From NCBI GenBank assembly GCA_947627985.1, contig CANQYD010000013.1, positions 1-54,344 on the forward strand: DNA of 54,344 bases, read 5' to 3'. Both the position numbers and the translations under genes were made by a program. This stretch comes from an uncultured Clostridia bacterium. Its GTDB lineage: Bacteria > Bacillota > Clostridia > Oscillospirales > Ruminococcaceae. Below, in pieces: positions 3,167 through 54,195 of the stretch (positions are counted from its first letter, which is position 1; each line of letters begins with the position of its first letter). The notes under the pieces are model-generated. The model was not told where the DNA came from. It was given only the letters and a program-made list of their open reading frames with translations, and made no database searches.

Positions 3167-3251
3167 GGGCGAAGCCCCCGGCGCCGAAGGCGCCGGCTGC
3201 CACAGCGAAGCTGTGGCAGAAGCCGTGCGAAGCACGGCTTGGGCTTCGCCC
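3167..3251. repeat. cloverleaf palindrome, type I, copy 1
   Basis: The outer arms GGGCGAAGCCC (3167-3177) and GGGCTTCGCCC (3241-3251) are exact reverse complements. They enclose three perfect hairpins with GAA triloops: arms 3178-3185/3189-3196 (8 bp), 3197-3206/3210-3219 (10 bp) and 3220-3228/3232-3240 (9 bp). The arms abut with no unpaired bases. GCGAAGC-type minihairpins are known to be exceptionally stable in DNA. Confidence 0.9.
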
Positions 3252-3395
3252 ATACCCCCCTGCTTCTATCGGGGTTCGGTGGGTTGTGCAAGCCCGGCAG
3301 CAGGGCTAGGTGCCTCTACCAGGAAAAGGCAGGAGCAGAAGGCTGGGCACAGGGTTTGGTGCCCCTCCCGAACCTCGATAGTCGCTGAAGGCTCG
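3252..3395. repeat. spacer joining type I and type II cloverleafs
   Basis: This 144-base spacer has a counterpart of 143 bases at 15224-15366. Both start with TGCTTCTATCGGGGTT and both contain GGCAGGAGCAGAA, so the two cloverleafs and their spacer form one composite element of about 310 bp. No coding potential was recognised. Confidence 0.6.
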
Positions 3396-3476
3396 GGGCG
3401 AAGCCCCGTCGGCTCGAAGAGCCAACGCGCCGACGCTTCGCGTCGGCGGTGCGACTTCGTCGCACGGGCTTCGCCC
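3396..3476. repeat. cloverleaf palindrome, type II, copy 1
   Basis: Outer arms 3396-3406 and 3466-3476 are the same words as in type I. Inside are hairpins with arms 3411-3415/3419-3423 (GAA loop), 3428-3436/3440-3448 (TTC loop) and 3449-3455/3459-3465 (TTC loop). The loop sense suggests that it lies inverted relative to type I. Confidence 0.9.
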
Positions 3477-3614
3477 TCCACCCCCTCACCCCGCACACAC
3501 CCAACCCAACCCCCATAGTCCTTCCTTTATCCTTCCCCTCCCTCCTCCGCCAAGCCTCCCAAGACGCACCTTCCCCTCAAAACCGCTTTCAAGGCTCACC
3601 CCGCAGCCTTTGCC
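3477..3614. other. G-poor, C-rich intergenic tail
   Basis: No gene is seen. The plus strand is almost free of G over long stretches (runs of CCC, CTCC, CACACACCC). The last part contains CCGCCAAGCCT, a word also found downstream of the cloverleafs at 15787-15976, so this is probably the degenerate 3' part of the same composite repeat. Confidence 0.45.
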
Positions 3615-3971
3615 CTACTCCTTCCCCCTCGTCCTGAACATCGCCGCCATCACGATCCCGAACGTCATCGCCGCGGCAATTCCTCCGGCGCAGGCAGTCA
3701 GTCCGCCGGTAAAAATCCCCAAAAATCCCTTCTCATCGACGGCTTCGCGAATCCCCTTCGACAAGAGGTAACCGAACCCCGTCAGCGGAACGCTCGCGCC
3801 GGCACCCGCAAGGTCGATAAGCGGCTTATAGAGACCCATTCCGCCGAGGATCACCCCCGCCACGACGAAGCTCACAAGTATCCTCGCCGGGGTCAGCTTC
3901 GTGTAATCGATTAGGATCTGACCGATCGCGCAGATCAGCCCGCCTATTAAAAAAGCCCAAAGATAGCTCAT
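3615..3971 (-). CDS. spoVAE: stage V sporulation protein AE (SpoVAEb)
   Basis: A 118-residue membrane protein with about four hydrophobic segments (residues 3-20, 30-50, 60-70, 85-112). The SpoVAEb pattern is recognisable: AFLIGGLICAIGQILID, then VPLTGFGYLLSKG, then GGLTACAGGIAAAMTFG. SpoVA proteins form the inner-membrane channel for dipicolinic acid uptake during sporulation and its release at germination. The gene follows spoVAD by three bases with a GGAGGTG site placed in the end of spoVAD. No gene for SpoVAC is next to the pair. Confidence 0.92.
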   Translation of the reverse strand: MSYLWAFLIGGLICAIGQILIDYTKLTPARILVSFVVAGVILGGMGLYKPLIDLAGAGASVPLTGFGYLLSKGIREAVDEKGFLGIFTGGLTACAGGIAAAMTFGIVMAAMFRTRGKE

Positions 3972-3974
3972 TTT

Positions 3975-4997
3975 TCACACCTCCCCGTGATTTGCGGAAA
4001 TCCATACGAGATGGGAAATTCCGGGTATTGTCATGCCCTGCTGACTCGAAGTCGGGCTCAGAAGCGCGCCCGTCGCGGCGAAGAGAATGTCCTTGAGCCT
4101 GCCGTCGCGAATCTCACGAAGGAAGTGCCCGCAGAGCATCGAAGCCGCACACCCGCAGCCCGAGCCGCCGGAGTGGACGTCCTGAGCGGTTTGGTTGAAG
4201 ATCATTCTGCCGCAGTCGGCGTGATTTTTTTCGATATCGATCCCGTCCCTCCCGAAGAGTTCGCAGAGTATTCGGGACCCGGCGTTACCTAAATCGCCCG
4301 TCACAATATAATCAAAATCCCGAGGCATGAGTCCCGTGTCCTTCATGAAATTTGAGATGGTGGAATATGCCGCCGGAGCCATCGCGGCGCCCATGTTGTT
4401 TGCGTCTTTGATACCCATGTCCTCGATCTTTCCGACCGTAACGGCACGGATAAAAGGCGGTTTATCGCCCTTTTCGACGATAAGCGCCCCGGCTGCGGTT
4501 GCGGTCCATTGAGATGTCGGCGTGCGCTGTCCTCCGTATTCAAGGGGAAATCGGTACTGTCTCTCGGCTGTACAGAAATGGGAAGATGTCACAGCCGCGG
4601 CTTTATCAAATCCTCCGCCGTCAACAAGCAAAGAGGCGATCATCAGCCCCTCAGCCATCGTCGAGCAAGCCCCGTAAATCCCGAGGAACGGAATCCCGAA
4701 ATCCTTTGCAGAAAAGCTCGTCCCGACGCACTGATTGAGCAGGTCCCCACCTATCAGAAGAGGCAGCTCCGAGGGCTCAATCCCCCTCTTTTCGAGTGCG
4801 TTCTGAAGCGCAAGCCCCTGCATAGCGCTCTCGGCGCGCTCAAAGCTCTTTTGCCCGAAAAATCCGTCTTTATCGATATAATCAAAACAGTCTCCGTAGG
4901 GACCTTCGCCCTCTTTTTTGCCGCCTATCGCCGAGAAAGCCGAGACGGTTACGGGGTGCTCGGTGAAGACGGTCGAGCCGTTTAATCTGACTGACAT
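3975..4997 (-). CDS. spoVAD: stage V sporulation protein AD
   Basis: A 340-residue thiolase-fold protein of the SpoVAD family, which binds Ca-dipicolinate and works with the SpoVAC/SpoVAE channel. Recognised segments are the N-terminal NGSTVFTEHPVTVS, IGGDLLNQCVGTSFSAKDFGIPFLGIYGACSTMAEG, the TSSHFCTAERQYRFPLEYG stretch and the C-terminal GGSGCGCAASMLCGHFL. Length is normal for the family. The start has GGAGTG upstream. It is the first gene of a two-gene unit with spoVAE. A forespore promoter is expected, but I could not fix one with confidence. Confidence 0.95.
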   Translation of the reverse strand: MSVRLNGSTVFTEHPVTVSAFSAIGGKKEGEGPYGDCFDYIDKDGFFGQKSFERAESAMQGLALQNALEKRGIEPSELPLLIGGDLLNQCVGTSFSAKDFGIPFLGIYGACSTMAEGLMIASLLVDGGGFDKAAAVTSSHFCTAERQYRFPLEYGGQRTPTSQWTATAAGALIVEKGDKPPFIRAVTVGKIEDMGIKDANNMGAAMAPAAYSTISNFMKDTGLMPRDFDYIVTGDLGNAGSRILCELFGRDGIDIEKNHADCGRMIFNQTAQDVHSGGSGCGCAASMLCGHFLREIRDGRLKDILFAATGALLSPTSSQQGMTIPGISHLVWISANHGEV

Positions 4998-5061
4998 TTT
5001 ATCACTCCAATTACTTTTTTCTATATTTTTCGCCGATGATTATTAAATATTCGCATTATGC

Positions 5062-5090
5062 TTGAAATTGCGAAAGTTTTGGTGTATACT
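5062..5090 (+). promoter_or_regulatory. promoter of lipoprotein gene 5127
   Basis: TTGAAA (5062-5067), 17-bp spacer, TATACT (5085-5090). The following bases GTCGGTAG are the same as those after the -10 of the lipoprotein gene at 23862. Confidence 0.8.
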
Positions 5091-5126
5091 GTCGGTAGAT
5101 AGATATTTTTAAATTGGAGGAATATT

Positions 5127-5951
5127 ATGTCAAAAAATTTATATACCGTCGGAGCTGCGCTTATTGCGGTCTCGATGATGATCTGCTCCTGCGGGAAAAA
5201 GCCGAATGAGGAGCAGATAAACGTCGTCACCCGCGATCCGAATATCCCCGACAACATCATAACGCAGGAAGCCCCGGAGACCTTGCCGGAGCCGGGAACA
5301 TCTATATCCGAAACGCTTCCCGAAACCGAACCCGAGGCGACCACCGCGGAGGAGACGACCGCAGAAGAGACATCCATAAAAGAAACCGAACCCCCCGAAA
5401 CCGACGTCCCCGAGACCGAGGAAGAAGAGGAAGTCCCCGAGGCTCTTGACACCAAGGCGGGGCAATATCTCAGCCTCCTGCACTCCAAAAAGGTCCACGC
5501 GAAGTACATTGCCGCGTCGAGCTATGACGGCGAGCAGATCTACACAAATTCCGCCGAGTATTATATCGACGGCGACAACGCCATCTATCGGACCGACACG
5601 GTAAGAAGGTTAGTTCAGGGCAGGCAGGTCACCGTCATCGACGACGGGAACAAGTTCTACATGACCTTCGAGGCTGAACCGGAGCCGTATATCTACTTCG
5701 GCTGGCAGCTCTCGGACTACACGCTCGTCTCGGCGACGGAGGACGAGGAGGTCTACGACATCGAGTCGGGAGGCGTCCGCTCGACATGGAATTTTGAAGG
5801 CGGGCAGATTAAGGTCCGCGACGTTTACCCGGACGGGTCGTTTATGCTGTATGACTTCGAGACGCTTGACAGCGATACTTCGGAGATGCTGTTCGAGGTG
5901 CCGTCGGGGTATGCGGAGGTCGACGCGGATGATTATGAGATGTATCAGTAG
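5127..5951 (+). CDS. lipoprotein with Thr/Glu/Pro-rich stalk, unknown function
   Basis: 274 residues. A signal peptide ends in the lipobox ICSC, with Cys22 the likely lipidated residue. Residues 25-105 are an extended acidic linker rich in Thr, Glu and Pro with repeats such as TAEETTAEET, probably a disordered stalk. Residues 110-274 are a compact, Tyr-rich and acidic domain with alternating beta-like segments (AEYYIDGDNAIYRTD, NKFYMTFEAEPEPYIYFGW). I do not recognise the family; it resembles many surface lipoproteins of gut Clostridia. It is monocistronic with its own promoter, divergent from spoVAD. GGAGG lies seven bases before the ATG. Confidence 0.8.
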   Translation: MSKNLYTVGAALIAVSMMICSCGKKPNEEQINVVTRDPNIPDNIITQEAPETLPEPGTSISETLPETEPEATTAEETTAEETSIKETEPPETDVPETEEEEEVPEALDTKAGQYLSLLHSKKVHAKYIAASSYDGEQIYTNSAEYYIDGDNAIYRTDTVRRLVQGRQVTVIDDGNKFYMTFEAEPEPYIYFGWQLSDYTLVSATEDEEVYDIESGGVRSTWNFEGGQIKVRDVYPDGSFMLYDFETLDSDTSEMLFEVPSGYAEVDADDYEMYQ

Positions 5952-5970
5952 GGAATTGATGGGGGTTTGG

Positions 5971-6093
5971 GGAGTGTACAAATCGCCCTCGTTATTCTCA
6001 CTAATTAAATCTGTCACCAACGGTGACACCTTGAAATTCTGACAATCTGACTTCTGACTTCTGTCCTCTTGATGTGGTCGTTTTGACCACATC
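5971..6093 (+). repeat. 123-nt structured repeat, copy A
   Basis: It begins GGAGTGTACAAA and ends with the hairpin GATGTGGTC (6071-6079) / GACCACATC (6085-6093). A second hairpin has arms GTCACC/GGTGAC near 6014-6028. A copy of the same length with about 11 differences lies inverted at 19107-19229. The period-7 array 6038-6073 is part of the element. Confidence 0.8.
6038..6073 (+). repeat. heptad array inside the 123-nt repeat
   Basis: Units TCTGACA, (A), TCTGACT, TCTGACT, TCTGTCC, TCTTGAT in direct order. Confidence 0.7.
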
Positions 6094-6116
6094 TGGGGGG
6101 TTGCCCCTTCTTTGGA

Positions 6117-6265
6117 CCCCTCCCCCTTTTAGGGGGAGGGGCTTATCCTTACTATAAGTCGGTACAGACTTCGGCGGGGAGGGGGTCTGCTTAAAACAGC
6201 ATATCAAATTTCCGCTCCTGCGGGAATTTGATATACCTTTTGACCAAGGGCGCGGCGGGTAGGGA
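6117..6265 (+). repeat. hairpin-cassette repeat, copy A
   Basis: In order: the hairpin CCCCTCCCCC (6117-6126) / GGGGGAGGGG (6132-6141); a small AAGTC/GACTT hairpin; the constant word CTGCTTAAAACAGCA ending at 6201; a 14-bp hairpin (arms 6202-6215 and 6220-6233, one G-T type pair); and the constant word TACCTTTT. The copy at 17313-17460 has the same order but a largely different hairpin stem. Confidence 0.75.
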
Positions 6266-6299
6266 AAAGCAAAATCAACACTCACCAACACCTTCATAA

Positions 6300-6655
6300 G
6301 CGGATAGCGTTGGGAGCAATTCATATCTCCAAGGCTTTCCTAATTTCCCATGCCATGCGTAGCAAAGAGCTTTTCGTATCTGCGCTGCGATTTTGCCTCG
6401 CTTCGCTCGGCTCCGGGCGACTTCGTAGCCCTCTTTGAAGGCAATTAAAAGCAAAAAGGACAGCTCTCGCTGTCCTTTTTTCGGGGATTTCGCCCATTGC
6501 GACGGGCGACCAAGGACTCCGCCTTACATGCAGGGTGTCTGCAAGCACAAGCAATCTTACGTTTTCGATTGCAAAGTGCGAACAGCAACAAAACCGGCAT
6601 GTAATTTGGACTCCCGCGAGCCTTTTGAAAAAGGCTCAATTGAAAACTTTTGACT
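6300..6655. repeat. mosaic of hairpin modules, no gene
   Basis: It shares pieces with 61-400 and 17150-17720: ATTCATATCTCCA, GCCTCGCTTCGCTCGGC, a GGGCGACTTCGTAGCCC hairpin, a 9-bp hairpin AAGGACAGC/GCTGTCCTT (about 6456-6477), a GGGATTTCGC block, and ACAAAACCGGCATG. The order of pieces differs between the islands. Nothing coding was recognised. Confidence 0.55.
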
Positions 6656-6659
6656 TGTC

Positions 6660-7112
6660 TCAATTCAAAGTTTGGCGCTGAGCCTGCTCTCCGACCGTCT
6701 CTCTTCTCATCGCCCCCGCCGTCTCATCCCCGAACATCACCCTTCTCAGCCCCGCCGAGACTATCCCCGCGGGGATCGACAGCAGCAGCCATATACATGA
6801 AAACGGCAGGCAGATCTGCCCCCACAAATTGAACGGCATATCCGAATAATCCCACACATTGAGATTCAGCGCACGGTTGATAAATATCCCAGATATCAGT
6901 TCCGCAACCGTCACCAAAACCGCGCAAAACGGCGCCTGCAAAAGCATATTCCCGCCGAAAAGCTCAAGTTCGTTGACAAAGTTTATCATCAGAAAACACA
7001 GCCCGCCGACGAAAAACATCGATATATGCGTGCTCCCTCGCCACATGATCTCCAAAAGCCCGTAGCTCAGCCCGCCGAATGTGAAAATGCCGAATGCCCT
7101 GAGCGCCTTCAT
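6660..7112 (-). CDS. CmpB-type integral membrane protein (putative ABC permease family)
   Basis: A 150-residue protein with four predicted membrane helices (about residues 7-22, 30-48, 60-80, 98-122). It contains the pattern typical of the ABC_trans_CmpB family (Pfam PF06541): AELISGIFINRALNLNVWDYSDMPFNLWGQICLPFSCIW. The function of this family is poorly known despite its name, and no ATPase partner is next to it. A GGGTGA site precedes the start. The C-terminal 25 residues are polar and cytosolic. The family assignment is from memory of the motif. Confidence 0.75.
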   Translation of the reverse strand: MKALRAFGIFTFGGLSYGLLEIMWRGSTHISMFFVGGLCFLMINFVNELELFGGNMLLQAPFCAVLVTVAELISGIFINRALNLNVWDYSDMPFNLWGQICLPFSCIWLLLSIPAGIVSAGLRRVMFGDETAGAMRRETVGEQAQRQTLN

Positions 7113-7197
7113 ATCATCACCCTTTCATATTTTGCATACACAGGATATTATTTCCAGATTTTAAGGAAATAATACCGAAAAAATTATAAAATTTTTG

Positions 7198-7226
7198 TTG
7201 ACTTTTTCGGGCAAGTGTGCTATATT
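7198..7226 (+). promoter_or_regulatory. promoter of valS
   Basis: TTGACT (7198-7203), 17-bp spacer, TATATT (7221-7226). Start near 7233, which leaves a leader of about 325 bases that holds the T-box. Confidence 0.85.
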
Positions 7227-7232
7227 TACGCT

Positions 7233-7525
7233 ATAGGCGTTTTAAGAGGAGTGAATGCCGACGGAGCTTCTGAAAGAGAGGCGGGCAAGGTGAAAGCCGC
7301 CGAAGCGCTCAGGTATTCTGTCGCCCCCGAGCCGGGAGGAAGAAAGGGTTTTCCCGAGTAGACCCTTCCCGTGTAAGCACGTTACAGCTTATTAAAGTGA
7401 GAAGTTTGGGCTGATGTTTTTTGGATATTTCTGTATTCTGATCATCTGACCTCCGACTTCTAATTTGAGTGGTACCGCGGGAATATTCTCGTCTCAAAGC
7501 TATACTTTGGGGCGATTTTTTATCG
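7233..7525 (+). promoter_or_regulatory. T-box riboswitch leader of valS
   Basis: The leader contains the stem I apical signature AGAGAGGCGGGCAAGGTGAAAG (in 7274-7295), a candidate specifier GTC (Val) at 7320-7322, CACGTTACAGC, and the T-box core GAGTGGTACCGCGGG (7467-7481). TGGT at 7470-7473 can pair with a tRNA-Val ending in ACCA. The terminator follows: arms 7490-7499 and 7505-7514, then six T at 7516-7521. Uncharged tRNA-Val should favour the antiterminator and raise valS expression. A heptad array (7430-7465) sits in the linker before the core, which is unusual. Confidence 0.9.
7430..7465 (+). repeat. heptad array inside the valS T-box leader
   Basis: Units TCTGTAT, TCTGATC, (A), TCTGACC, TCCGACT, TCTAATT. 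The last unit runs directly into the T-box core. Confidence 0.7.
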
Positions 7526-7557
7526 CTCCGAAAATCTTTAAGAAAGAGGTACACAGC

Positions 7558-10173
7558 ATGAAAAAGGAACTCGAAAAGCTCTACGATCCCAAGTCGGTGG
7601 AGGACAGAATCTACCGCTACTGGATCGACGGAGGGTATTTCAAGGCGAAGGTGAATCCCGATAAAAAGCCTTACTGCATCGTCATGCCTCCGCCGAACAT
7701 CACCGGTCAGCTCCATATGGGTCACGCGCTCGACGAAACTCTTCAGGATATTCTGATCCGCTACAAGAGGATGTCCGGCTTCGAGACGCTCTGGCTCCCC
7801 GGAACCGATCACGCTTCCATCGCGACGGAGGCAAAGATCGTCTCGGAGATGAAAAAAGAAGGGCTCACGAAGGACGATCTCGGGCGCGAGGGATTTTTAA
7901 AGCGCGCTTGGGACTGGAAGGAAAAATACGGCACGAGGATAATCAGTCAGCTTAAAAAATTAGGCTCCTCCTGCGACTGGGACCGCGAGCGGTTCACGAT
8001 GGACGAGGGCTGCTCAAAGGCGGTCAAGGAAGTCTTTGTGAGATATTATGAAAAAGGGCTTATTTATCGCGGCGAGAGGATCATCAACTGGTGCCCCCAC
8101 TGCCTGACGTCGATCTCTAACGCGGAGGTTGAATATGAGGAGCAAGCCGGGCATTTCTGGCATTTAAGATACCCCCTGACCGACGGCTCGGGCTGGCTTG
8201 AACTCGCCACGACCCGTCCCGAAACTCTTTTGGGTGATACAGCCGTCGCCGTAAATCCCAAAGATGAGAGATATAAAAAATACGTCGGAAAGACCGTCAC
8301 CCTGCCTCTTGTCGGCAGAGAAATTCCGGTAGTTGCGGACTCTTATGTTGATATGGAATTCGGCACCGGCGTCGTCAAGATCACCCCGGCTCACGACCCG
8401 AACGACTTTGAAGTCGGAATGAGGCATAATCTTGCCGTCATCAACGTGATGACCGACGACGCGAAGATCACCGACGATTACCCGAAATACGCGGGTATGG
8501 ACCGCTTTGAGGCAAGAAAGGCGATCGTTGCCGACCTCGAAGCCGGGGGATATCTTGTTCGTATTGAGGATTATTCCCATAACGTCGGCACCTGTTACCG
8601 CTGCGGCACCACCATTGAGCCGAGGGTATCGCTTCAGTGGTTCGTCAGGATGGCAGACCTTGCAAAGCCCGCGATTGAAGCCGTGAGGTCGGGCAGGACA
8701 AAATTCATCCCCGAGAGATTTGAAAAGAATTACTTCAACTGGATGGAGGATATCAGGGACTGGTGCGTCTCCCGTCAGCTCTGGTGGGGGCACAGAATCC
8801 CCGCGTTTTACTGCGACGACTGCGGCGAGACGGTCGTCACCAAAGAAGACAGCGCAGTTTGCCCGAAGTGCGGCAAGCCGATGAGGCAGGACCCCGACAC
8901 CCTCGACACATGGTTCTCATCTGCATTATGGGCTTTTTCCACCCTCGGCTGGCCCGAAAAGACCCCGGAGCTTGAATATTTCTACCCGACGAGCACCCTC
9001 GTGACGGGCTGGGATATCATCACCTTCTGGGTCTCGAGAATGATCGTTGCCGGAATGGAATTCATGAATGACAGACCCTTCGACAACGTCCTTATTCACG
9101 GTCTCATGCGCGATCCGAACGGTTTAAAGATGTCTAAATCCTTGGGCAACGGCGTAGACCCGCTCGAAGTCATCGACAAATACGGCGCAGACGCCTTAAG
9201 ATTCATGGTCGCGTCGGGAACATCGCCCGGAAACGACATGAGATACTCGGAGGAAAAGGTCAAGGCGTGCCGAAACTTTGCAAATAAACTCTGGAACGCG
9301 ACGAGGTTCATCATGATGAACCTGCCGGACGATTTCACCGTCCCCGAAAAGCTCCCCGAGAGCCTTATGCTCGAGGACAAGTGGGTGGTCTCAAAGCTCA
9401 ATACGCTTGCCAAAGAGGTCAACGAAAACCTTGAAAAATTTGAGCTCGGAGTCGCCGCGCAGAAGGTCTACGACTTCATCTGGGACGTCTACTGCGACTG
9501 GTATATTGAACTCACCAAGCCGAGGATAAACGCGGGCGGAGAGACTGCCGAAACCGCTCAGCAGGTGCTTGTTTGGGTGATGGTGGGGATATTAAAACTC
9601 CTGCACCCCTTCATGCCCTTTATCACCGAGGAGATCTGGCAGGCTCTTGACGGCACCGGCAAGCCCCTTATGCTCGAAGCCTTCCCGGTCTATGACAGTG
9701 CTCTTGATTATCCTTCCGAGGAGGAAGATTTTGAGAAGATCATCGAAGCCATCAAGTCGGTAAGAAACCGCAGAGCGGAGATGAACGTGCCTCCCTCAAA
9801 GAAGGCTGAACTCTTCATCGAGACCGCAGAACCCGAAGTGTATGAAAAGGGGAAGATGTTCTTTGAACGCCTTGCTTCGGCTTCAGACGTTGTAATCGGC
9901 GGGAAAATGCCGGAGGGGTCTTTGGTCATCGTCACGACTTCGGCGAGGCTCTTTATCCCGATGAGCGAGCTTATCGACCGTGAAAAGGAGCTGGCAAGGC
10001 TCAATAAGGAAAAAGCTTCCGCCGAAAAAGATATCAATATGCTGACATCAAAACTGTCAAACGAGGGCTTCATCGCAAAAGCTCCCGCACAGGTCGTCGA
10101 AAATGAAAGGGCGAAGCTTGAAGCCGCTAAGGAAAGGCTTTCTAAGATCGAGCAGTCGATCTCAGCCCTATAA
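7558..10173 (+). CDS. valS: valyl-tRNA synthetase
   Basis: An 871-residue class Ia synthetase that charges tRNA-Val. It shows the HIGH motif as HMGH (53-56), the KMSKS motif (524-528, LKMSKSLGNGVDP), an editing domain between them (about 180-350, with GTGVVKITPAHDPNDFEVG), a zinc-ribbon-like CDDCGE...CPKCGK insert near residue 420-440, an anticodon-binding domain, and the C-terminal coiled coil (about 800-871) typical of ValRS. The ATG at 7558 is chosen over an upstream GTG because it has GAAAGAGG before it and lies after the T-box terminator; the earlier codons fall within the T-box core and terminator. Confidence 0.98.
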   Translation: MKKELEKLYDPKSVEDRIYRYWIDGGYFKAKVNPDKKPYCIVMPPPNITGQLHMGHALDETLQDILIRYKRMSGFETLWLPGTDHASIATEAKIVSEMKKEGLTKDDLGREGFLKRAWDWKEKYGTRIISQLKKLGSSCDWDRERFTMDEGCSKAVKEVFVRYYEKGLIYRGERIINWCPHCLTSISNAEVEYEEQAGHFWHLRYPLTDGSGWLELATTRPETLLGDTAVAVNPKDERYKKYVGKTVTLPLVGREIPVVADSYVDMEFGTGVVKITPAHDPNDFEVGMRHNLAVINVMTDDAKITDDYPKYAGMDRFEARKAIVADLEAGGYLVRIEDYSHNVGTCYRCGTTIEPRVSLQWFVRMADLAKPAIEAVRSGRTKFIPERFEKNYFNWMEDIRDWCVSRQLWWGHRIPAFYCDDCGETVVTKEDSAVCPKCGKPMRQDPDTLDTWFSSALWAFSTLGWPEKTPELEYFYPTSTLVTGWDIITFWVSRMIVAGMEFMNDRPFDNVLIHGLMRDPNGLKMSKSLGNGVDPLEVIDKYGADALRFMVASGTSPGNDMRYSEEKVKACRNFANKLWNATRFIMMNLPDDFTVPEKLPESLMLEDKWVVSKLNTLAKEVNENLEKFELGVAAQKVYDFIWDVYCDWYIELTKPRINAGGETAETAQQVLVWVMVGILKLLHPFMPFITEEIWQALDGTGKPLMLEAFPVYDSALDYPSEEEDFEKIIEAIKSVRNRRAEMNVPPSKKAELFIETAEPEVYEKGKMFFERLASASDVVIGGKMPEGSLVIVTTSARLFIPMSELIDREKELARLNKEKASAEKDINMLTSKLSNEGFIAKAPAQVVENERAKLEAAKERLSKIEQSISAL

Positions 10174-15138: not shown

Positions 15139-15223
15139 GGGCGAAGCCCTCGGCGCCGAAGGCGCCGACTGCCACAGCGAAGCTGCGGCAGAAGCCGTGC
15201 GAAGCACGGCTTGGGCTTCGCCC
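15139..15223. repeat. cloverleaf palindrome, type I, copy 2
   Basis: Outer arms 15139-15149 and 15213-15223. Internal GAA-triloop hairpins have the same sequence as at 3167-3251 except for one base in the middle arm (GCTGCGGCAG) and small changes at the edges. Confidence 0.88.
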
Positions 15224-15366
15224 GTGCTTGCTGCTTCTATCGGGGTTTGGTGGGGTGCTGAAGGTTGGCGGCAGGGGTGGGTGCTTCTGACGGGGGAAGG
15301 CAGGAGCAGAAAGTTGGCGGTGAGGGTGGCTGCCCCTACCGCACCTCGGCAGGAGCAGAAGGCTTG

Positions 15367-15443
15367 GGGCGAAGCCCCGCTGCCGCAGGCAGCGCGCCGA
15401 CGCTGCGCGTCGGCGGTGCGACTTCGTCGCACGGGCTTCGCCC
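15367..15443. repeat. cloverleaf palindrome, type II, copy 2
   Basis: Outer arms 15367-15377 and 15433-15443. The first inner hairpin is CGCTGCC/GGCAGCG with loop GCA, where copy 1 has GGCTC/GAGCC with loop GAA, so both arms changed together. The other two inner hairpins match copy 1 in their arms. Confidence 0.88.
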
Positions 15444-15489
15444 GCAGTCCCCCCGCACCTTTCACCAAGCCATATGAGAAACCGTAACC

Positions 15490-15976
15490 CCCCGGCAAGC
15501 ACCAAGCTCGCCTTACCCTCTTGCCAAGTTTAGGAACACATTGGTAATAGCTATGACTTTGCGCCTACTTTCATGCTGTACAAAGCAAAAATACGGGGCT
15601 GTGTACAGGGCATAAAACCTACTTGCTGCTCCTATCAAGGCTCGGTGCTGCATGAAGGCTCAGGCTGGGCTTAGTGCCCCTACCGCACCTCGGCAGGAGC
15701 AGAAGGCTCGGGGCGAAGCCCCGCTGCCGCAGGCAGCGCGCCGACGCTTCGCGTCGGCGGTGCGACTTCGTCGCACGGGCTTCGCCCGCTGTCCCCCTCA
15801 CCTTCCGCCAAGCCTTTCTCACAAGCAGCAAACCCCGGCAAGCACCAAGCCCGCCTTACCCTCTTGCCAAGTTTAGGAACACATTGGTAATAGTTATGAC
15901 CTTGCGCCCGCTGTCCCCCACCTTCCGCCAAGCCTTTCTCACAAGCAGCAAACCCCGGCAAGCACCAAGCCCGCCT
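15490..15976 (+). repeat. direct duplications around cloverleaf copy 3
   Basis: A block starting CCCCGGCAAGCACCAAGC and running through AGGAACACATTGGTAATAG occurs at about 15490-15565 and 15833-15909. A second block starting CACCTTCCGCCAAGCC occurs at about 15797-15856 and 15916-15976. The two sets interleave, which points to successive tandem duplication. Confidence 0.7.
15711..15787. repeat. cloverleaf palindrome, type II, copy 3
   Basis: Outer arms 15711-15721 and 15777-15787. Inner hairpins as in copy 2, except that the second loop is TTC. About 85 bases of the composite spacer precede it, without a type I partner. Confidence 0.88.
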
Positions 15977-47935: not shown

Positions 47936-47956
47936 AGAAAACACCTCCACGATTAT

Positions 47957-47985
47957 ATTATACCATGCCGGGGGGATTTTGTAAA
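47957..47985 (-). promoter_or_regulatory. promoter of nfeD-SPFH operon
   Basis: On the minus strand: TTTACA (47985-47980), 17-bp spacer, TG-extended TATAAT (47962-47957). Confidence 0.82.
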
Positions 47986-48144
47986 GGAGATCAATTTATC
48001 CAAATTTTGATGGCGGGGGTTGTGGGAATTAGATAAAAAAGGGGGGATTTCTCCACCCGGTTCACTCTTGCTATGAAAAGGAAGTTAATGTATATAAAAT
48101 CCGCTTAAACCGTGGGTTCAAAGCTTCAAGCATAGAAAAATAAG

Positions 48145-48199
48145 TCCTCCCGCGATAATACAGAAGAGGTATGGCAGCCTCAACTATAAACCGGGAGGA
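48145..48199 (-). terminator. possible terminator of hslO operon
   Basis: The inverted repeat TCCTCCCG (48145-48152) / CGGGAGGA (48192-48199) has a 39-nt loop that itself contains GAGG/CCTC. On the minus strand it is followed by CTTATTTTT. The long loop makes it uncertain. The remainder of 47986-48227 shows nothing else definite. Confidence 0.4.
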
Positions 48200-48227
48200 A
48201 TATTTAAAAAACTGTAGCATGGAATTT

Positions 48228-49097
48228 CTATTTATTCTGAATCCCCAAAACCTCGTCCCTCGTAAACCGATAGACCTTATCGCAAAAGTGGCACCGCACC
48301 TCGGTGATCTCATCTTCCGCGAGGCTCATGATATCCTTCTTGGGCAGGCTCGCGAGGATCCTCTCCGTCCGCTCGCGCGAGCAGTCGCAGCGATAATTCA
48401 CCTCAAAACGGTCCAGAACATTCGGCTCAAGCCCCTTCAAGGCGTTCATCGCGATATCCTCCGCCGACAGCCCGAGCTCCATCATGGTCGTGACCGACGG
48501 CATTTCCGCGATATTTTTCTCGATGACGTCTACGCACTCATCGGGCGCAAACGGCAGCAGCTGTATGAGAAATCCCCCCGCGTTTTTGACCGTGAGATCG
48601 GGATTTACGAGCACCCCGAGGGCGCACACGGTCGGCACCTGTTCCGAGACAGCAAAGTAGCTCGTGATATCCTCGGCAATTTCGCCCGACACAAGCTCCA
48701 CCTGACCTACATACGGCTCTTTGAGCCCGATGTCTTTGATGACGGTCAGCGTGCCGTTTTTACCTACGGCACCCCCGACATTGAGCTTGCCGTCAGGTCT
48801 TAGCGGCAGCTCGACGATATTTTCATCGCAGTAAGCCTTCACATTCCCAAAGCTGTCCGCGACGGCGACCATGCCCCCGATGGGACCCGAGCCGTTGACC
48901 CTAACCGTCACGCTCCCGTCCTTTTCCTTCAAGCCGAACCCGATGAGCGACGCGCCCATGGCGAGCCTTCCGAGAGCTGCGGTCACGACGGCGCTGGTTT
49001 TGTGAATCCTTTCGATCTCGGCGGCGATGTCTTTTCCCTCGATCGCCGAGCAGACGACCGACGCGTCTGCGCTTATTGTTCTTACAATTCTTCCCAT
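48228..49097 (-). CDS. hslO: redox-regulated chaperone Hsp33
   Basis: 289 residues. A holdase chaperone activated by oxidation. The zinc-binding cysteines are C237 and C239 (RCDCS) and C269 and C272 (RCHFC), the usual CXC and CXXC pairs. N-terminal domain: GRLAMGASLIGFGLKEKDGSVTVRVNGSGPIGGMVAVAD. The start follows the stop of the methyltransferase gene without a gap (TAA ATG), with GGAG in the end of that gene. Last gene of a three-gene unit. Confidence 0.96.
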   Translation of the reverse strand: MGRIVRTISADASVVCSAIEGKDIAAEIERIHKTSAVVTAALGRLAMGASLIGFGLKEKDGSVTVRVNGSGPIGGMVAVADSFGNVKAYCDENIVELPLRPDGKLNVGGAVGKNGTLTVIKDIGLKEPYVGQVELVSGEIAEDITSYFAVSEQVPTVCALGVLVNPDLTVKNAGGFLIQLLPFAPDECVDVIEKNIAEMPSVTTMMELGLSAEDIAMNALKGLEPNVLDRFEVNYRCDCSRERTERILASLPKKDIMSLAEDEITEVRCHFCDKVYRFTRDEVLGIQNK

Positions 49098-49838
49098 TTA
49101 TATGCTCCTCGCAAGATATAAAATTCTCTCCGACCTCGGCACGGGCAGGCGCCCGGATATCCCGTCAAAATACCCCAAAACCTCAAACCCCGAAGCCCGC
49201 AAACCCCTTAATATAAGCCTTTTGGGATATGCATACTCCTTAAAACTCTCGTTATTATGGATAATTTTCTCCCCGGTATCTTCAAAGAAATCGAGGGTGA
49301 TCTTCACCGAGCAGTCCCGGGGATCATATTCATTCTCCCAACTGCAATAGAGCCCGGGGAGCCTGTAGATAAAGGAGTTGTCGCCTAAAATCCGCTCATG
49401 CTTGTAAGGCGTGTTCATATCAAAAATAAAAAGCCCGCCCGGCTTGATATTCCTCTTGATCGCCCGAAATGCCGTCATCACTTCCCCGAACCCTTCAAGG
49501 TGATTCAAGCTGTCAAGCGCGCAAACGGCGACGTCGGCAGGGCAGGGGAGTTTGAAATCCCTCACATCGCCCCTATAAACGGGCATGAAAATACCGCGCT
49601 CAAGCGTCTTTTGCTTTGCGCGTTGAAGCATTTCTTCACTTAGATCGACCCCGCTCACTCGGTACCCCAATTTATTAAGCTCAATCCCGAGACTTAAGGT
49701 GCCGCAGCAAAGCTCAACTATGCTCAGACTTTCGGAGCTGTAGGCTTTTATCAGCTTACTTAGTCTTCCGGCATAGCCGGCATAGTTGATATTGCTTGTG
49801 AGCCGGTCGTAGTAATCGGCGAATGCGCGATAACTCAC
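49098..49838 (-). CDS. class I SAM-dependent methyltransferase
   Basis: 246 residues. N-terminal FADYYDRLTSNINYAGYAGRL, SAM motif I VELCCGTLSLGIELNKLGYRVSGVDLSEEML (about 41-70), motif II-like RGDVRDFKLPCPADVAVCALDSLNHL and motif III GGLFIFDMNTPYKHE. Similar small methyltransferases are common next to yerC-like genes in Clostridia. It starts two bases after the end of the TrpR-like gene. Substrate unknown. Confidence 0.9.
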   Translation of the reverse strand: MSYRAFADYYDRLTSNINYAGYAGRLSKLIKAYSSESLSIVELCCGTLSLGIELNKLGYRVSGVDLSEEMLQRAKQKTLERGIFMPVYRGDVRDFKLPCPADVAVCALDSLNHLEGFGEVMTAFRAIKRNIKPGGLFIFDMNTPYKHERILGDNSFIYRLPGLYCSWENEYDPRDCSVKITLDFFEDTGEKIIHNNESFKEYAYPKRLILRGLRASGFEVLGYFDGISGRLPVPRSERILYLARSI

Positions 49839-49840
49839 TA

Positions 49841-50137
49841 TCAGTCGTTACCCTCGCCGAGGCGTTTGAAGATCATCGAATATCCTCCCGCGCCATAGTT
49901 GATGCTGCGGTTTACCCTTGAAATAGTAGCGGTGGAAGCACCGGTTTTGGCAACGATGTCGCTGTAGACATAGTGATTTGTGAGCATCTTCGCGACTTGG
50001 AAGCGCTGTGCCAGACTGTTGATCTCAAGGATCGTGCAGAGGTCCTCAAACAGGGCATAGCACTCCTCCTTGTTCTTGAGGCTTAGGATCGCGTCAAACA
50101 GCTGGTCAAACTGCTCATTTGGTACGAGATTAGGCAT
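49841..50137 (-). CDS. TrpR-like protein YerC/YecD
   Basis: 98 residues. A helix-turn-helix DNA-binding protein of the TrpR superfamily, YerC/YecD branch: LCTILEINSLAQRFQVAKMLTNHYVYSDIVAKTGASTATISRVNRSINYGAGGY is diagnostic. It binds no tryptophan as far as is known, and its targets are unknown. It is the first gene of the unit yerC-methyltransferase-hslO. AAAGGAG lies before the ATG. Confidence 0.93.
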   Translation of the reverse strand: MPNLVPNEQFDQLFDAILSLKNKEECYALFEDLCTILEINSLAQRFQVAKMLTNHYVYSDIVAKTGASTATISRVNRSINYGAGGYSMIFKRLGEGND

Positions 50138-50192
50138 AATTAACTCCTTTACCGTACATGATTATAGTTGTCCGGTTATTTATGGTATCTCC

Positions 50193-50221
50193 ATTATAAC
50201 ACATCATTTTGGAAATGTAAA
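50193..50221 (-). promoter_or_regulatory. promoter of yerC-hslO operon
   Basis: On the minus strand: TTTACA (50221-50216), 17-bp spacer, TATAAT (50198-50193). A second TATAAT lies at 50166-50161 without a clear -35. Confidence 0.75.
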
Positions 50222-50276
50222 GCCTTTTTTCCTAAAAAGGTACAAGAATTTCAATTTTTTTCAATCATGCATAAAT

Positions 50277-50882
50277 TTATTGTCTATTTTTGGCAAAATC
50301 TGACGAAATTTCTTCCACAATTTTCCTTAGCTGCTCTACTCCTTCCCCGCTTACCGCGGAAAAGGGAACAACAGTCAGCTGATCGAAGCAGGGAAGTTCA
50401 CCCGGCAAAGCCGCTTCACGAGCCGATCTTTCGGATTTATTGAGCTTATCAGCCTTCGTCAGAACGATTATAAAAGGCAGCTCGCAGTCGATAAGGTAGT
50501 CAATCATCACCAGATCGTCCTTGGTCGGGGGGTGACGAAAATCCACAAGCTGCATGATGAGCCCGATCTCGCGCCGATCATCACCCAAATACCCGCCGAT
50601 GAGGTCCCGCCAGCGCTCTTTTTCCGACTTTGACACTTTAGCATACCCATACCCCGGGAGATCGACAAAGCTGACATCTCCCAATTTATAGAAATTCACG
50701 GTCGCGGTCTTGCCGGGAGTGGCGCTCACCCGAGCGAGCGAACGCCTACCGAACAGGCTGTTGATGAGCGACGATTTCCCGACGTTTGAGTGCCCGGAAA
50801 ACGCGATCTCCAAGCCCTTTGACGGCGGCAGCTGCTTAAAAGTCCCGTATGCCGCCGAAAATTCTGCAAGGTTAAAATTCAT
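50277..50882 (-). CDS. engB: ribosome biogenesis GTPase EngB/YsxC
   Basis: 201 residues. G1 GHSNVGKSS (about 30-38), G2 region around ATPGKTATVNFY, G3 DLPGYGYAKVSKSEKERW, G4 LTKADKLNKSE, G5 SAVSGEGVEQL. YsxC is an essential GTPase needed for assembly of the 50S subunit. It lies directly behind lon, sharing one base (stop/start at 50882), as in many Firmicutes where lon-ysxC is an operon. Confidence 0.96.
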   Translation of the reverse strand: MNFNLAEFSAAYGTFKQLPPSKGLEIAFSGHSNVGKSSLINSLFGRRSLARVSATPGKTATVNFYKLGDVSFVDLPGYGYAKVSKSEKERWRDLIGGYLGDDRREIGLIMQLVDFRHPPTKDDLVMIDYLIDCELPFIIVLTKADKLNKSERSAREAALPGELPCFDQLTVVPFSAVSGEGVEQLRKIVEEISSDFAKNRQ

Positions 50883-53278
50883 CAGCTTCTTGCTCCGATC
50901 CTGTTGCCGGGCTTTTGGTAATTTTTAGGGATAACGTCCTGCCCGCTCTTCGGCATGATTAGAGCGGTGTTCAGAACGTCCTCCACCGTCTCGGCAAAGA
51001 CGAATTCCACGGCTGCTTTGACCTTTTCATCGACCTCTTCAAGGTCGGGTCTGTTGGCGGCGGGGATAATTACGGTGCGGATTCCGGCTTTATATGCAGC
51101 CATCGTCTTTTCTCTGAGACCCCCGATCGCAAGGACTTTTCCTCGAAGAGTGATCTCCCCGGTCATTGCGACGTCCGACCTCACGGGAATTCCCGAAAGT
51201 TCGGAGATTATCGCGGTCGCAAGGGTCACGCCGGCTGAGGGACCGTCTTTCGGAACAGCGCCTTCGGGAGCATGAATGTGAATATCCTTTTTCTTGTAAA
51301 ATTCGGGGTCGATGCCGTATTTATCGGCAACGCTTCTTGCGTAGCTGACGGCGATCTTGGCGCTTTCCTTCATGACGTCGCCGAGGGAACCGGTCAGCTC
51401 AAGGGTGCCTTTTCCGTCTACCGAGAGCACTTCAAGGGGCATGAGAGTGCCGCCTACCGACGTCCATGCAAGACCGTTGACCTCGCCAACCTGCGGCGTT
51501 TCGGATTTGAGATCGTTTGTGAATTTTCTGATACCGAGGTACTTCTCGACCGTCTCCTGAGTGACGGTGATCCTGTTAGCCTCTTTTGATACGATATCTT
51601 TTGCGGCTTTTCTGCAAATCGAGGCTATGCAGCGCTCAAGCGATCTGACCCCGGCTTCACGGGTATAAAAATCGATGAGTTCATAAAGACCGGAATCGGT
51701 GAAGCGGAGCATGTTGCCGTTGAGACCGTTAGCCTTGAGCTGCTTCGGGACAAGGTGCCTCTTTGCGATCTCGTACTTCTCTTCACGGGTATAGCTCGGC
51801 AGCTCGATGACGTCCATGCGGTCAAGAAGGGGAGGAGCGATGGTGTCGAGGGTGTTGGCGGTCGTGATGAACAAAACGTCTGAAAGATCGAAGGGTATCT
51901 CGATATAATGATCGCGGAATTCTTTATTCTGCTCGCTGTCCAAGACTTCCAGCATGGCGCTCGAGGGATCGCCTCGGAAATCGTTAGACATCTTATCTAT
52001 CTCATCGAGGAGGATCATCGGGTTTTTGGTGCCCGCCTGCTTTACCGCGGCGATGATCCGACCCGGCATCGAGCCTATGTAGGTCTTTCTGTGCCCTCTG
52101 ATGTCGGATTCGTCCCGGATTCCTCCGAGGGAGACTCTTGCATATTTTCTGCCCAAAGCCTTTGCGACGGACTTTCCGATTGAGGTCTTACCCACGCCGG
52201 GAGGTCCCACAAGGCAGATGATCTGACCTTTGACATCGGGAATAAGATTTCTCACGGCGATGAGTTCAAGTATTCTGTCCTTGACCTTTTTCATGCCGTA
52301 GTGATCGCGGTCGAGCTGAGCCGAGACCTTGTTTATGTCGGTCTTGTCGGTGGTCTTTTTGTTCCAGGGAAGCTCCAAGACGGTGTCGAGATAGCTCCTG
52401 ATGACCGACGCCTCCTGCGAACCGTAAGGCATTTTCCCGAGGCGGTTTGCCTCCTCGACGAGCTTCTCGACGCTCTTTTCGGGAAGCCCTAATTTTGCGA
52501 TCTTTTCAAGATATGCAAAACTCTCGTCGGCGGGGTCTTCCTCTTCGCCGAGTTCTTCCCTGATGACACGCATTTCTTCTCTAAGATAATAATCCCGCTG
52601 TTCTCTTGCGATCGCTTCCCCGACTTTTTCATGCAGGTCTCGTTCGATGACGATCATCTGCGTCTCATCGGATAACATCGCAAAGAGTTTGGCAAGCTTT
52701 TCTGAGGCGGTAGGAGTCTCTAAAAGCTCCTGTCTGCGGTCGGCTGAGAATACTATATTAAAAGCGATCGCTTCAAAGAGCTGCTCGCAGCTTGACGCGC
52801 CGTTTACGGAATTTCTGAGTTCGTCCGGCATCTTCGGAACGACCTGAGAATAGGAATTGAAAGCCGCCTTGACAAGCTTCATCAGGGACAAAATTTCGTC
52901 GTCGGAAGCGGGATCGGAGGCATAATTCGAGCACTGTCTGACCGTCGCGATTATGCCCTCCTCGGTCTTATTGAAATCTACAAGTTTAGCTTTTATGAGA
53001 CCTTCGACGCGGACCCTTGTGATCCCGTCCGGGCTCTTGACGGTCTGGATAATGCGGCAGATCGTGCCGACGGTGTAGACGTCGCGCATGTCGGGGTCCT
53101 GAACGGAATTATCCTTCTGAGCGGTCAAAAAGACGAGCTTCTGATCCGAAAGCGCCGCTCTTAAGGAGTCGAGTGAGCGTTTTCTGGTGACGTCGAAGCG
53201 AAGCTGCATACCCGGAAAGACGACAACGTCCCTCGTGGCGACGCAGGGAAGCGTCATAAATGTAAATTTTTCGGACAT
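50882..53278 (-). CDS. lon: ATP-dependent Lon protease
   Basis: 798 residues. N-terminal LonN domain (1-200, LPCVATRDVVVFPGMQLRFDVTRKRSL), coiled coil, AAA+ domain with Walker A GPPGVGKTS (near 355-363) and LLDEIDKM, and a C-terminal serine-lysine protease domain with catalytic S681 in PKDGPSAGVT and the lysine near 724 (GGLREKTMAA). It degrades misfolded and regulatory proteins in the cytosol. Good consensus promoter; no CIRCE element was seen upstream. It is the first gene of lon-engB. Confidence 0.97.
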   Translation of the reverse strand: MSEKFTFMTLPCVATRDVVVFPGMQLRFDVTRKRSLDSLRAALSDQKLVFLTAQKDNSVQDPDMRDVYTVGTICRIIQTVKSPDGITRVRVEGLIKAKLVDFNKTEEGIIATVRQCSNYASDPASDDEILSLMKLVKAAFNSYSQVVPKMPDELRNSVNGASSCEQLFEAIAFNIVFSADRRQELLETPTASEKLAKLFAMLSDETQMIVIERDLHEKVGEAIAREQRDYYLREEMRVIREELGEEEDPADESFAYLEKIAKLGLPEKSVEKLVEEANRLGKMPYGSQEASVIRSYLDTVLELPWNKKTTDKTDINKVSAQLDRDHYGMKKVKDRILELIAVRNLIPDVKGQIICLVGPPGVGKTSIGKSVAKALGRKYARVSLGGIRDESDIRGHRKTYIGSMPGRIIAAVKQAGTKNPMILLDEIDKMSNDFRGDPSSAMLEVLDSEQNKEFRDHYIEIPFDLSDVLFITTANTLDTIAPPLLDRMDVIELPSYTREEKYEIAKRHLVPKQLKANGLNGNMLRFTDSGLYELIDFYTREAGVRSLERCIASICRKAAKDIVSKEANRITVTQETVEKYLGIRKFTNDLKSETPQVGEVNGLAWTSVGGTLMPLEVLSVDGKGTLELTGSLGDVMKESAKIAVSYARSVADKYGIDPEFYKKKDIHIHAPEGAVPKDGPSAGVTLATAIISELSGIPVRSDVAMTGEITLRGKVLAIGGLREKTMAAYKAGIRTVIIPAANRPDLEEVDEKVKAAVEFVFAETVEDVLNTALIMPKSGQDVIPKNYQKPGNRIGARS

Positions 53279-53325
53279 AAAATAACCTCTCTATCACATT
53301 TTAACCGAAGTTTGGAACCTGCACA

Positions 53326-53340
53326 GCCGATATCATCGGC
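53326..53340. promoter_or_regulatory. palindrome at lon transcription start
   Basis: GCCGAT (53326-53331) ATC ATCGGC (53335-53340): 6-bp perfect inverted repeat with a 3-base centre, just downstream of the lon -10. A possible operator or 5' hairpin; no known factor assigned. Confidence 0.35.
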
Positions 53341-53348
53341 ATACAGCT

Positions 53349-53377
53349 ATTATAGCAAATATCCGCGCAATTTGCAA
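53349..53377 (-). promoter_or_regulatory. promoter of lon-engB
   Basis: On the minus strand: TTGCAA (53377-53372), 17-bp spacer, TG-extended TATAAT (53354-53349). Confidence 0.8.
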
Positions 53378-53530
53378 TAGATAAATTTATGGATATAATG
53401 CATTGAATCGGGAGAGGATTTGGTAAAAAGATAGAGGGTGGGGAGTAAGGGGTGATGGTGCCGATGTGCGATAAGGAGGGGTGGGTGGAGTGTGAGAGGA
53501 GAGGGGAGGGGGTCATTAGCGGCTTGGTGG

Positions 53531-53783
53531 AAGAGGAAGCTTACGGGCGGAGCCCCGCCGGTCCGAAGGACCGGCGCGCCTGCGCCTTCGGCGCAGGCGG
53601 TCCCGCTCCGCGGGACGGGCTCCGCCCGATCTATCCCACACAGCCATCCCCTGTAAGTACATCCCCGCAACACCTCATGCAAGCTCCCAGCCAATCTTCA
53701 ACGGAGTATAGCACTTTCTTTGCGTGCCGCATTTGGAGTTATATGAAATGTCAGATTTAAGCATATAGACCTACTGTCTGCTC
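53531..53783 (+). repeat. tandem repeat unit with cloverleaf, copy 1
   Basis: The unit starts AAGAGGAAGC, includes the cloverleaf 53545-53627, and continues through ATCTTCAACGGAGTATAGCA and ATGAAATGTCAGATT. The second copy starts 412 bases later. Confidence 0.75.
53545..53627. repeat. cloverleaf palindrome, type II variant, copy 1
   Basis: Outer arms GGGCGGAGCCC (53545-53555) and GGGCTCCGCCC (53617-53627). Inner hairpins: GCCGGTCC/GGACCGGC (GAA loop), CGCCTGCGCC/GGCGCAGGCG (TTC loop), GTCCCGC/GCGGGAC (TCC loop). Outer GAA:TTC of the other islands is replaced by GGA:TCC on both sides. Confidence 0.9.
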
Positions 53784-53941
53784 CTGAGCACAGTTTGTAC
53801 AAATCCTAAAATTAAGCAAAGTGCCACTTTCACAGCTTAAATGGGCACTATGCCTCTATGATACCCTCCTATCTACTCCTTTCCTTGCCTTGTGCAGAAT
53901 CCAACAATGCAGGGGTGACAGCCTCTTTACCATCTTAGTGA

Positions 53942-54195
53942 AAGAGGAAGCCTCCCGGGCGGAGCCCCGCCGGTCCGAAGGACCGGCGCGCCTGCGCCTC
54001 CGGCGCAGGCTGTCCCGCTTCGCGGGACGGGCTCCGCCCGAGGTCTCTCACACAGCCTTTCCCCGTAAGAACAGCCCTGCAGCACTATATGCAAGCAGCC
54101 AGCCTATCTTCAACGCAGTATAGCACTTTCTTAGCACGCCGCATTTGGAACCACATGAAATGTCAGATTCAAGCACATAAAGACCGTCTGTTCCG
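53942..54195 (+). repeat. tandem repeat unit with cloverleaf, copy 2
   Basis: Imperfect copy of 53531-53783. The stretch between the two copies (53784-53941) has no recognised gene. Confidence 0.75.
53957..54039. repeat. cloverleaf palindrome, type II variant, copy 2
   Basis: Outer arms 53957-53967 and 54029-54039, same as the preceding copy. The triloops of the second and third inner hairpins are exchanged (TCC and TTC instead of TTC and TCC), while the arms are kept except at the last base pairs. Confidence 0.9.

What the first reader, a model, noticed from the sequence alone, without database searches (positions are those of the whole stretch)
3167..54039. Seven cloverleaf palindromes made of GAA/TTC triloop hairpins
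Elements at 3167-3251, 3396-3476, 15139-15223, 15367-15443, 15711-15787, 53545-53627 and 53957-54039 each have an 11-bp outer stem that encloses three abutting hairpins, almost all with 3-nt loops closed by C-G. Seen directly. GCGAAGC minihairpins are unusually stable in single-stranded DNA (established), so the elements may act as ssDNA structures (replication, recombination, single-strand transposition) or as RNA. They resemble REP/BIME elements in design but not in sequence as I know it. No known family comes to mind.
Basis: partly seen in the sequence, partly recalled or inferred. Interest (0 to 1): 0.8.

Follow-up and report, generated by a model that had tools for sequence, protein, structure and literature searches.

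The report
Dispersed DNA cloverleaves of mini-hairpins
This gut bacterium carries about 190 scattered copies of an 80-base DNA element whose three-hairpin cloverleaf shape is kept while its letters change freely, which points to an undescribed repeat that works through the folded shape of its DNA.

Summary
Confirmed. All seven elements lie at the stated coordinates and fold as described (z -6.9 to -10.1). All 21 inner loops are 3 nt, C-G closed and of type GNA or its complement TNC; 16 are exactly GAA/TTC.

They belong to a large family: 190 exact-arm copies in the own 2.16 Mb genome (reversed pattern 0), present in 14 of 30 congeners and 0 of 29 genomes of other genera.

Outer arms and shape are constant; inner hairpins differ almost freely. 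Among elements chosen by exact arms alone, 37 of 37 own and 70 of 72 relatives' cores have exactly three hairpins; shuffled cores 6-10%, other organisms 2 of 16. Hairpins recur as modules and loops flip GAA/TTC. Fifty element pairs align over the element and stop at its edges.

No RAYT (0 of 31 over cut-off), no clear target duplication, no Rfam match; G-U pairs below 1%. Best reading: a non-autonomous dispersed palindromic repeat acting as folded single-stranded DNA. Mobility, single-strand action and any enzyme are inferred, not shown.

The parts
3167..3251 (.). cloverleaf element 1; outer arms 3167-3177 and 3241-3251; loops GAA, GAA, GAA
   Evidence: fold z -9.00; detector
3252..3395 (.). 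companion linker (144 bp) between elements 1 and 2, related to linkers of other arrays (for example 81.6% over 125 bp with C3:75256)
3396..3476 (.). cloverleaf element 2; loops GAA, TTC, TTC; one mismatch in first hairpin
   Evidence: fold z -6.90; detector
15139..15223 (.). cloverleaf element 3; loops GAA, GAA, GAA; one mismatch in middle hairpin
   Evidence: fold z -8.46; missed by detector
15224..15366 (.). companion linker (143 bp) between elements 3 and 4
   Evidence: 75.6% over 135 bp to the linker 3252-3395
15367..15443 (.). cloverleaf element 4; loops GCA, TGC, TTC
   Evidence: fold z -7.50; detector
15444..15710 (.). companion linker (267 bp) between elements 4 and 5
15711..15787 (.). 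cloverleaf element 5; loops GCA, TTC, TTC; part of a 123-nt repeat 98% identical to 15331-15453
   Evidence: fold z -8.23; repeat
53545..53627 (.). cloverleaf element 6; arms GGGCGGAGCCC/GGGCTCCGCCC; loops GAA, TTC, TCC
   Evidence: fold z -10.07; detector
53957..54039 (.). cloverleaf element 7; loops GAA, TCC, TTC; with 6 lies in a 224-nt direct repeat, 87% identical
   Evidence: fold z -8.16; repeat

Best explanation
The seven elements are members of a dispersed, non-coding, non-autonomous palindromic repeat family of one group of related gut Clostridia. Shown: 11-base outer arms of nearly fixed sequence enclose exactly three mini-hairpins; the shape is kept while the hairpin sequences change; the loops stay GNA on one strand or the other; hairpins recur as modules in different combinations and loops flip; near-identical copies in unrelated contexts share only the element; units often stand in tandem with a related linker. 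Inferred: the working form is a folded single DNA strand (cloverleaf or five hairpins), exposed for instance on the lagging-strand template or by cruciform extrusion. Inferred: copies spread by a process that recognises the arms or the shape, while template switching inside hairpins and recombination between copies keep stems perfect, flip loops and swap hairpins. Unknown: the enzyme, if any.
For: 190 copies against 0 for the reversed pattern. Arms-only selection: 37 of 37 and 70 of 72 cores with exactly three hairpins, median z -5.7 and -6.1; shuffled 6% and 10%; other organisms 2 of 16, median z -0.9. Core similarity between elements near that of shuffled letters (medians 0.53 and 0.51 against 0.42 and 0.45). 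Loops: 91 of 97 and 147 of 172 triloops are GNA/TNC, against 11 of 261 other hairpins and 15 of 75 terminator-like hairpins in the same DNA. GNA DNA mini-hairpins are exceptionally stable (passages of PMC4686876 and PMC6479982). G-U pairs 0.5% and 0.9%. 50 of 376 end-to-end aligned own pairs stop within 3 bases of both edges, up to 98.7% identity. 48 parsed own places show 30 stem combinations; one combination of 13 places has middle loops GAA 6, TTC 3, and GGC, TCC, TGC, AAA once each. Chimera at C3:75462 between its array neighbours.
Against: No clean empty site: only one species-level genome each is held, and the one candidate keeps part of an arm. Exact-edge copies could also come from gene conversion between existing copies. 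No target-site duplication: 1 of 47 has a 2-base repeat. No enzyme was found to track the family. In the own genome first and third loops are mostly antisymmetric (22 GNA/TNC, 0 the reverse, 6 same), so many own copies share ancestry and are not independent; in relatives they look random (11, 8, 33). Much of the own diversity outside one class of 13 rests on single copies (23 of 30 combinations). 6 of 54 own places could not be parsed by the strict detector.
Confidence: 0.55

Rival explanations
1. The elements act as RNA: terminators, mRNA stabilisers or small RNAs made from intergenic cloverleaves.
For: Mostly intergenic, somewhat nearer to 3' than to 5' gene ends, and rare in divergent gaps (3 of 41, against 16 of 74 tandem and 4 of 32 convergent), with crude gene calls. 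One element of G018 begins in the stop codon of the upstream gene. The fold is also stable with RNA parameters.
Against: 2 of 47 have a TTTT run within 14 nt on either side. No Rfam match at gathering cut-offs in the window; at E up to 1 in a 6.2 kb stretch with own elements the only match is a T-box. G-U pairs 0.5-0.9%, low for a conserved RNA (recalled). Loops fit DNA GNA mini-hairpins, not the UNCG/GNRA tetraloops of stable RNA hairpins (recalled); but 13 of 75 terminator-like hairpins of this genome also have TTC loops.
Confidence: 0.2
2. A mutational by-product: palindromes made and kept perfect by replication template switching and spread by duplication and gene conversion, with no function and no dedicated transposition.
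For: Loop flips with unchanged stems, near-perfect stems, chimeras and tandem arrays are what such processes give. No transposase found.
Against: It does not by itself explain exactly three inner hairpins, constant arms across species, or GNA loops kept while stems change, nor 190 copies in one genome against 1-68 in congeners.
Confidence: 0.2
3. A REP/BIME family mobilised by a Y1 (RAYT or IS200) transposase.
For: Extragenic, high copy, palindromic, in a mosaic with companion motifs. The own genome has two Y1 genes.
Against: RAYT model: 0 of 31 over cut-off, 7 of 31 weak matches. Own Y1 proteins: IS200 model 144.7 and 141.1 bits (cut-off 55), RAYT model 32.7 and 33.9 (cut-off 80). No cloverleaf in any of the 12 fetched Y1 loci. 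Among the six element-bearing congeners searched for Y1, four (G003, G005, G007, G010) have none; G007 is 86% complete. No GTAG/CGTC tag apparent at element edges by eye.
Confidence: 0.05

Closest known systems
REP/BIME elements and REPINs of proteobacteria
   Same: Short extragenic palindromes, high copy, in mosaics with companion motifs; proposed to act as single-stranded DNA (passages of PMC3733652; abstracts)
   Different: Three hairpins inside an outer stem instead of one 20-40 bp hairpin, no GTAG/CGTC tag seen, no RAYT over cut-off, interior sequence not conserved
Mobile GC clusters of yeast mitochondrial DNA
   Same: GC-rich hairpin elements, structure under constraint, rapid substitution, merger and shuffling of units (passages of PMC4478555)
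   Different: Organelle DNA; GC clusters carry a putative target-site duplication, none here; no fixed three-hairpin cloverleaf reported in the passages seen
MITEs
   Same: Short, non-coding, inverted terminal repeats, high copy
   Different: No clear target-site duplication, interior not shared between copies, no parent transposon found
IS200/IS605 end hairpins
   Same: Folded single-strand hairpins recognised by a transposase (general knowledge)
   Different: The own IS200 copies have their own end hairpins and no cloverleaf in the fetched flanks
GNA DNA mini-hairpins such as d(GCGAAGC)
   Same: The inner and arm hairpins have this loop type and closing pair
   Different: Known from synthetic DNA studies in the passages seen, not as a building block of a genomic repeat family

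Membership tests
REP/RAYT (REPtron) system | RAYT transposase in the genome | tested here: not met
   NF047646: 0 of 31 genomes of the genus over cut-off; 7 of 31 weak matches; own Y1 proteins are IS200
REP/RAYT (REPtron) system | GTAG or CGTC tetranucleotide next to a single 20-40 bp hairpin | tested here: not met
   Edges of 47 own elements show no such common tag by eye; three hairpins in an outer stem
REP/BIME | Extragenic, high copy, palindromic, mosaic arrays | tested here: met
   6 elements fell inside crudely called ORFs that I judge spurious or extended
MITE | Target-site duplication | tested here: not met
   Exact abutting repeats of 2-12 bases sought at 47 own elements: 1 with 2 bases
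MITE | Parent transposon with the same ends | tested here: inconclusive
   Only Y1 loci were checked; other transposases not searched
Rfam RNA family | Match to a curated model | tested here: not met
   0 matches in the window at gathering cut-offs
Intrinsic terminator | Hairpin followed by a T run | tested here: not met
   2 of 47 have TTTT within 14 nt on either side
Mobile GC-cluster type hairpin element | Hairpin structure conserved, units merged and shuffled | tested here: met
Mobile GC-cluster type hairpin element | Presence/absence between strains at one site | not testable with these tools
   One genome per species held; between species at the 3' end of the gene 3615-3971, G000 and G018 have elements, ten other element-bearing congeners none by detector

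The most novel reading that the evidence does not exclude
A mobile DNA family defined and recognised by the folded shape of one DNA strand rather than by its sequence: fixed arms enclose three interchangeable GNA mini-hairpins, and selection keeps the cloverleaf while the letters drift freely. It would be spread by an unidentified activity of its host.
Probability: 0.3. Interest if true: 0.82.

Novelty: new variant of a known kind. Interest (0 to 1): 0.62.

Why it matters
It is a natural set of over a hundred sequence-divergent DNA cloverleaves (46 own and 79 from relatives by detector) with one architecture and a DNA-type loop signature. That makes it testable whether cells keep and move DNA elements by single-strand shape. 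It would be a bacterial counterpart to the hairpin elements of organelles, and it offers a natural record of hairpin inversion and module swapping.

Tried and rejected
RAYT or IS200 mobilisation: not supported. Reverse transcriptase as partner: RVT_1 matches in 10 of 31 genomes (7 over cut-off), not tracking the elements. Wider spread: the arm pair occurs in Roseomonas, Magnetococcales, Chloroflexaceae, Pirellulales and others; by eye none of these 17 loci is a cloverleaf with its arms, though 2 of their 16 distinct cores fold into three hairpins when folded alone. L089 (Ruminococcaceae MAG) was set apart from both sets and is a cloverleaf. Viral contigs: 4 stretches match the arms, none a cloverleaf by detector. 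Plasmids and phages: no match to the 305-bp island. Purine-rich left and pyrimidine-rich right flanks of own elements are absent in relatives, and own flank pairs do not pair better than mixed ones (7.7 against 8.7 pairs), so I do not count them as part of the conserved element. Longer inverted repeats around isolated elements: own left-right similarity no higher than mixed (17 elements). Empty sites in own DNA: 3 junction-spanning hits among 47, one a contig-end artefact, one a self-match, one candidate that keeps part of an arm. My first caller mis-set arms and took in unrelated palindromes; rebuilt (47 of 48 kept; one with two hairpins dropped). One search counted some places twice; recounted by place. 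The script failed to find the gene end in ten of eleven loci, and misplaced it in two truncated loci (G022, G016); for these only the detector result is used. A covariance model and a formal pair count were not made, because sequence alignment misaligns the free hairpins. The arm letters occur in 8 papers; I saw the listing only and opened none. One fetched stretch of another genus read as N and says nothing.
Full report
OBSERVATION. Each folds as single-stranded DNA into an outer stem and three abutting hairpins, z -6.9 to -10.1, with 0 of 200 shuffles as stable. All 21 inner loops are 3 nt, closed by C-G, and are GNA or the complement TNC; 16 are exactly GAA/TTC. Each outer arm is itself a mini-hairpin. 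A structure-only detector finds six of the seven and none in ten shuffles of the window.

EXTENT. The arm GGGCTTCGCCC occurs 210 + 215 times on the two strands of the 2.16 Mb own genome, against 0 + 3 for the reversed pattern. The arm pair at cloverleaf spacing occurs 190 times, against 0. Of 60 genomes (own, 30 congeners, 29 of other genera), 15 have it: own and 14 congeners, the latter with 1-68 copies. By Lon identity to the own protein, the 13 bearers with a full-length match stand at 73-79% and the 14 non-bearers with one at 65-72%; G001, G011 and G013 have only partial matches. I infer one clade; no tree was built. Its cloverleaves lie in 'uncultured Clostridia bacterium ... Lapin' MAGs (72 distinct exact-arm elements under 13 accession prefixes) and in one 'Ruminococcaceae bacterium RUG14213' MAG (L089). 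Exact-arm counts are minima: window elements 6 and 7 and one G022 element with wholly different arms are missed. In random stretches the detector finds elements unevenly: 4 of 20 stretches hold one each (G004, G011, G018, G022), the other 16 none, nine of these from bearers; the stretches of eight non-bearers and seven genomes of other genera hold none, one of them unreadable.

SHAPE WITHOUT SEQUENCE. To avoid circularity I chose elements by exact arms alone and then folded the cores. Exactly three hairpins: 37 of 37 distinct own cores and 70 of 72 from relatives; median z -5.7 and -6.1. Shuffled cores: 6% and 10%. Sixteen distinct cores with the same arms from other organisms: 2 with three hairpins, median z -0.9. 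In 391 kb of own stretches the detector, which allows 2, 3 or 4 inner hairpins, found 35 with three and 1 with two, against 1 hit in shuffled DNA. Similarity between cores is near that of shuffled letters.

LOOPS AND DNA. Of triloops, 91 of 97 (own) and 147 of 172 (relatives) are GNA or TNC; all loops number 111 and 214. Closing pairs are C-G in 128 of 138 and 201 of 237 hairpins. In the same own DNA outside elements, 11 of 261 hairpins with stems of 7 bp or more have such loops, and 15 of 75 terminator-like hairpins; 13 of these 15 are TTC, perhaps from a second repeat family (not checked one by one). DNA mini-hairpins with a GNA loop and G-C stem are exceptionally stable: Tm 78 C for GCGAAGC, with a sheared G-A pair (passages of PMC4686876; PMC6479982). 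A fixed G and A around a variable base is what that loop needs. G-U pairs are 0.5% and 0.9% of pairs over both strands. I take this as favouring DNA over RNA, not as proof.

DYNAMICS. Of 54 own places examined, 48 could be parsed: 30 stem combinations, 23 of them seen once; 17 of 50 stem modules occur in two or more combinations. Thirteen places share one combination, with middle loops GAA 6, TTC 3, GGC, TCC, TGC and AAA once each. GAA to TTC with unchanged stem is most simply a hairpin inversion. The middle member of the array C3:75170/75462/75744 looks like a chimera of its neighbours. Of 1081 own pairs, 376 align end to end (about 15 of them neighbours with overlapping flanks); 50 stop within 3 bases of both edges, up to 98.7% identity. 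Gene conversion could also give this. Exact abutting target duplication: 1 of 47, 2 bases. The best empty-site candidate keeps part of an arm. At the 3' end of the gene 3615-3971 (spoVAE by recall), the own genome has two elements, G018 a different one that begins in the stop codon, and ten other element-bearing congeners none by detector. A paralogue locus of G020 (38% identity) also holds a cloverleaf.

SURROUNDINGS. Seventeen neighbour spacings are under 700 bp, ten of them 275-300 bp (first caller). The 17 linkers resemble one another in part; the motif TTCTGCTCCTATCAAGG, picked by eye from them, lies within 400 bp of an element in 25 of 26 hits, 1.8 expected. This mosaic recalls BIMEs. 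With crude gene calls, intergenic gaps holding elements are 16 of 74 tandem, 4 of 32 convergent and 3 of 41 divergent.

ENZYME. Own Y1 proteins: two, both IS200 by NCBIfam, no cloverleaf in any of the 12 fetched Y1 loci. RAYT: 0 of 31 over cut-off. RVT_1 does not track the family. No other transposase or recombinase family was searched.

KNOWN KINDS. No Rfam match in the window; none in plasmids or phages for the 305-bp island. It works most like REP/BIME and like the mobile GC clusters of yeast mitochondria (passages), but fails the tested REP and MITE criteria. Searches of open-access PMC found no description.

VERDICT. The family is real and, within these searches, undescribed. That it is mobile and acts as folded single-stranded DNA is the best-supported reading (0.55), ahead of RNA function (0.2) and a mutational by-product (0.2).

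Noticed in passing
own-genome stretches C3, C4, C6, C9, C10 and window: A second hairpin-rich repeat (CTCGCTTCGCTCGGC, 25 hits; GGGCGACTTCGTCGCC, 24 hits in 445 kb, one mismatch allowed), mostly away from the cloverleaves; some copies precede a T run.
   Followed up: partly
flanks of the 47 own elements, 20 bases each side: About 20 purine-rich bases on the left (0.71) and 20 pyrimidine-rich bases on the right (0.68-0.73), ending sharply; not seen in relatives.
   Followed up: partly
own-genome stretches and relatives' flanks (L079, L100, L113): Heptad-like repeats (CAGAGGTCAGAAGTCAGAGG, 27 hits, 14 within 400 bp of an element), seen beside elements in another species too.
   Followed up: no
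L068 1471-1920 and L076 665-1114: Two near-identical IS200 transposase genes with CCCCCGGC end hairpins in the own genome.
   Followed up: yes
L275 16654-16761 (G022): A three-hairpin cloverleaf with unrelated outer arms GCGGCGATTTCGCCG, so the architecture is not tied to the GGGCGAAGCCC arm.
   Followed up: no
L089 4961-5042: A rumen Ruminococcaceae MAG has a cloverleaf with the same arms but AT-type loops.
   Followed up: no
G000 C4:66, C5:389, C9:436: Elements lie within 0.5 kb of contig starts, as if the repeats break the assembly.
   Followed up: no
L031 5696-5925: T-box leader (RF00230, 99.3 bits).
   Followed up: no
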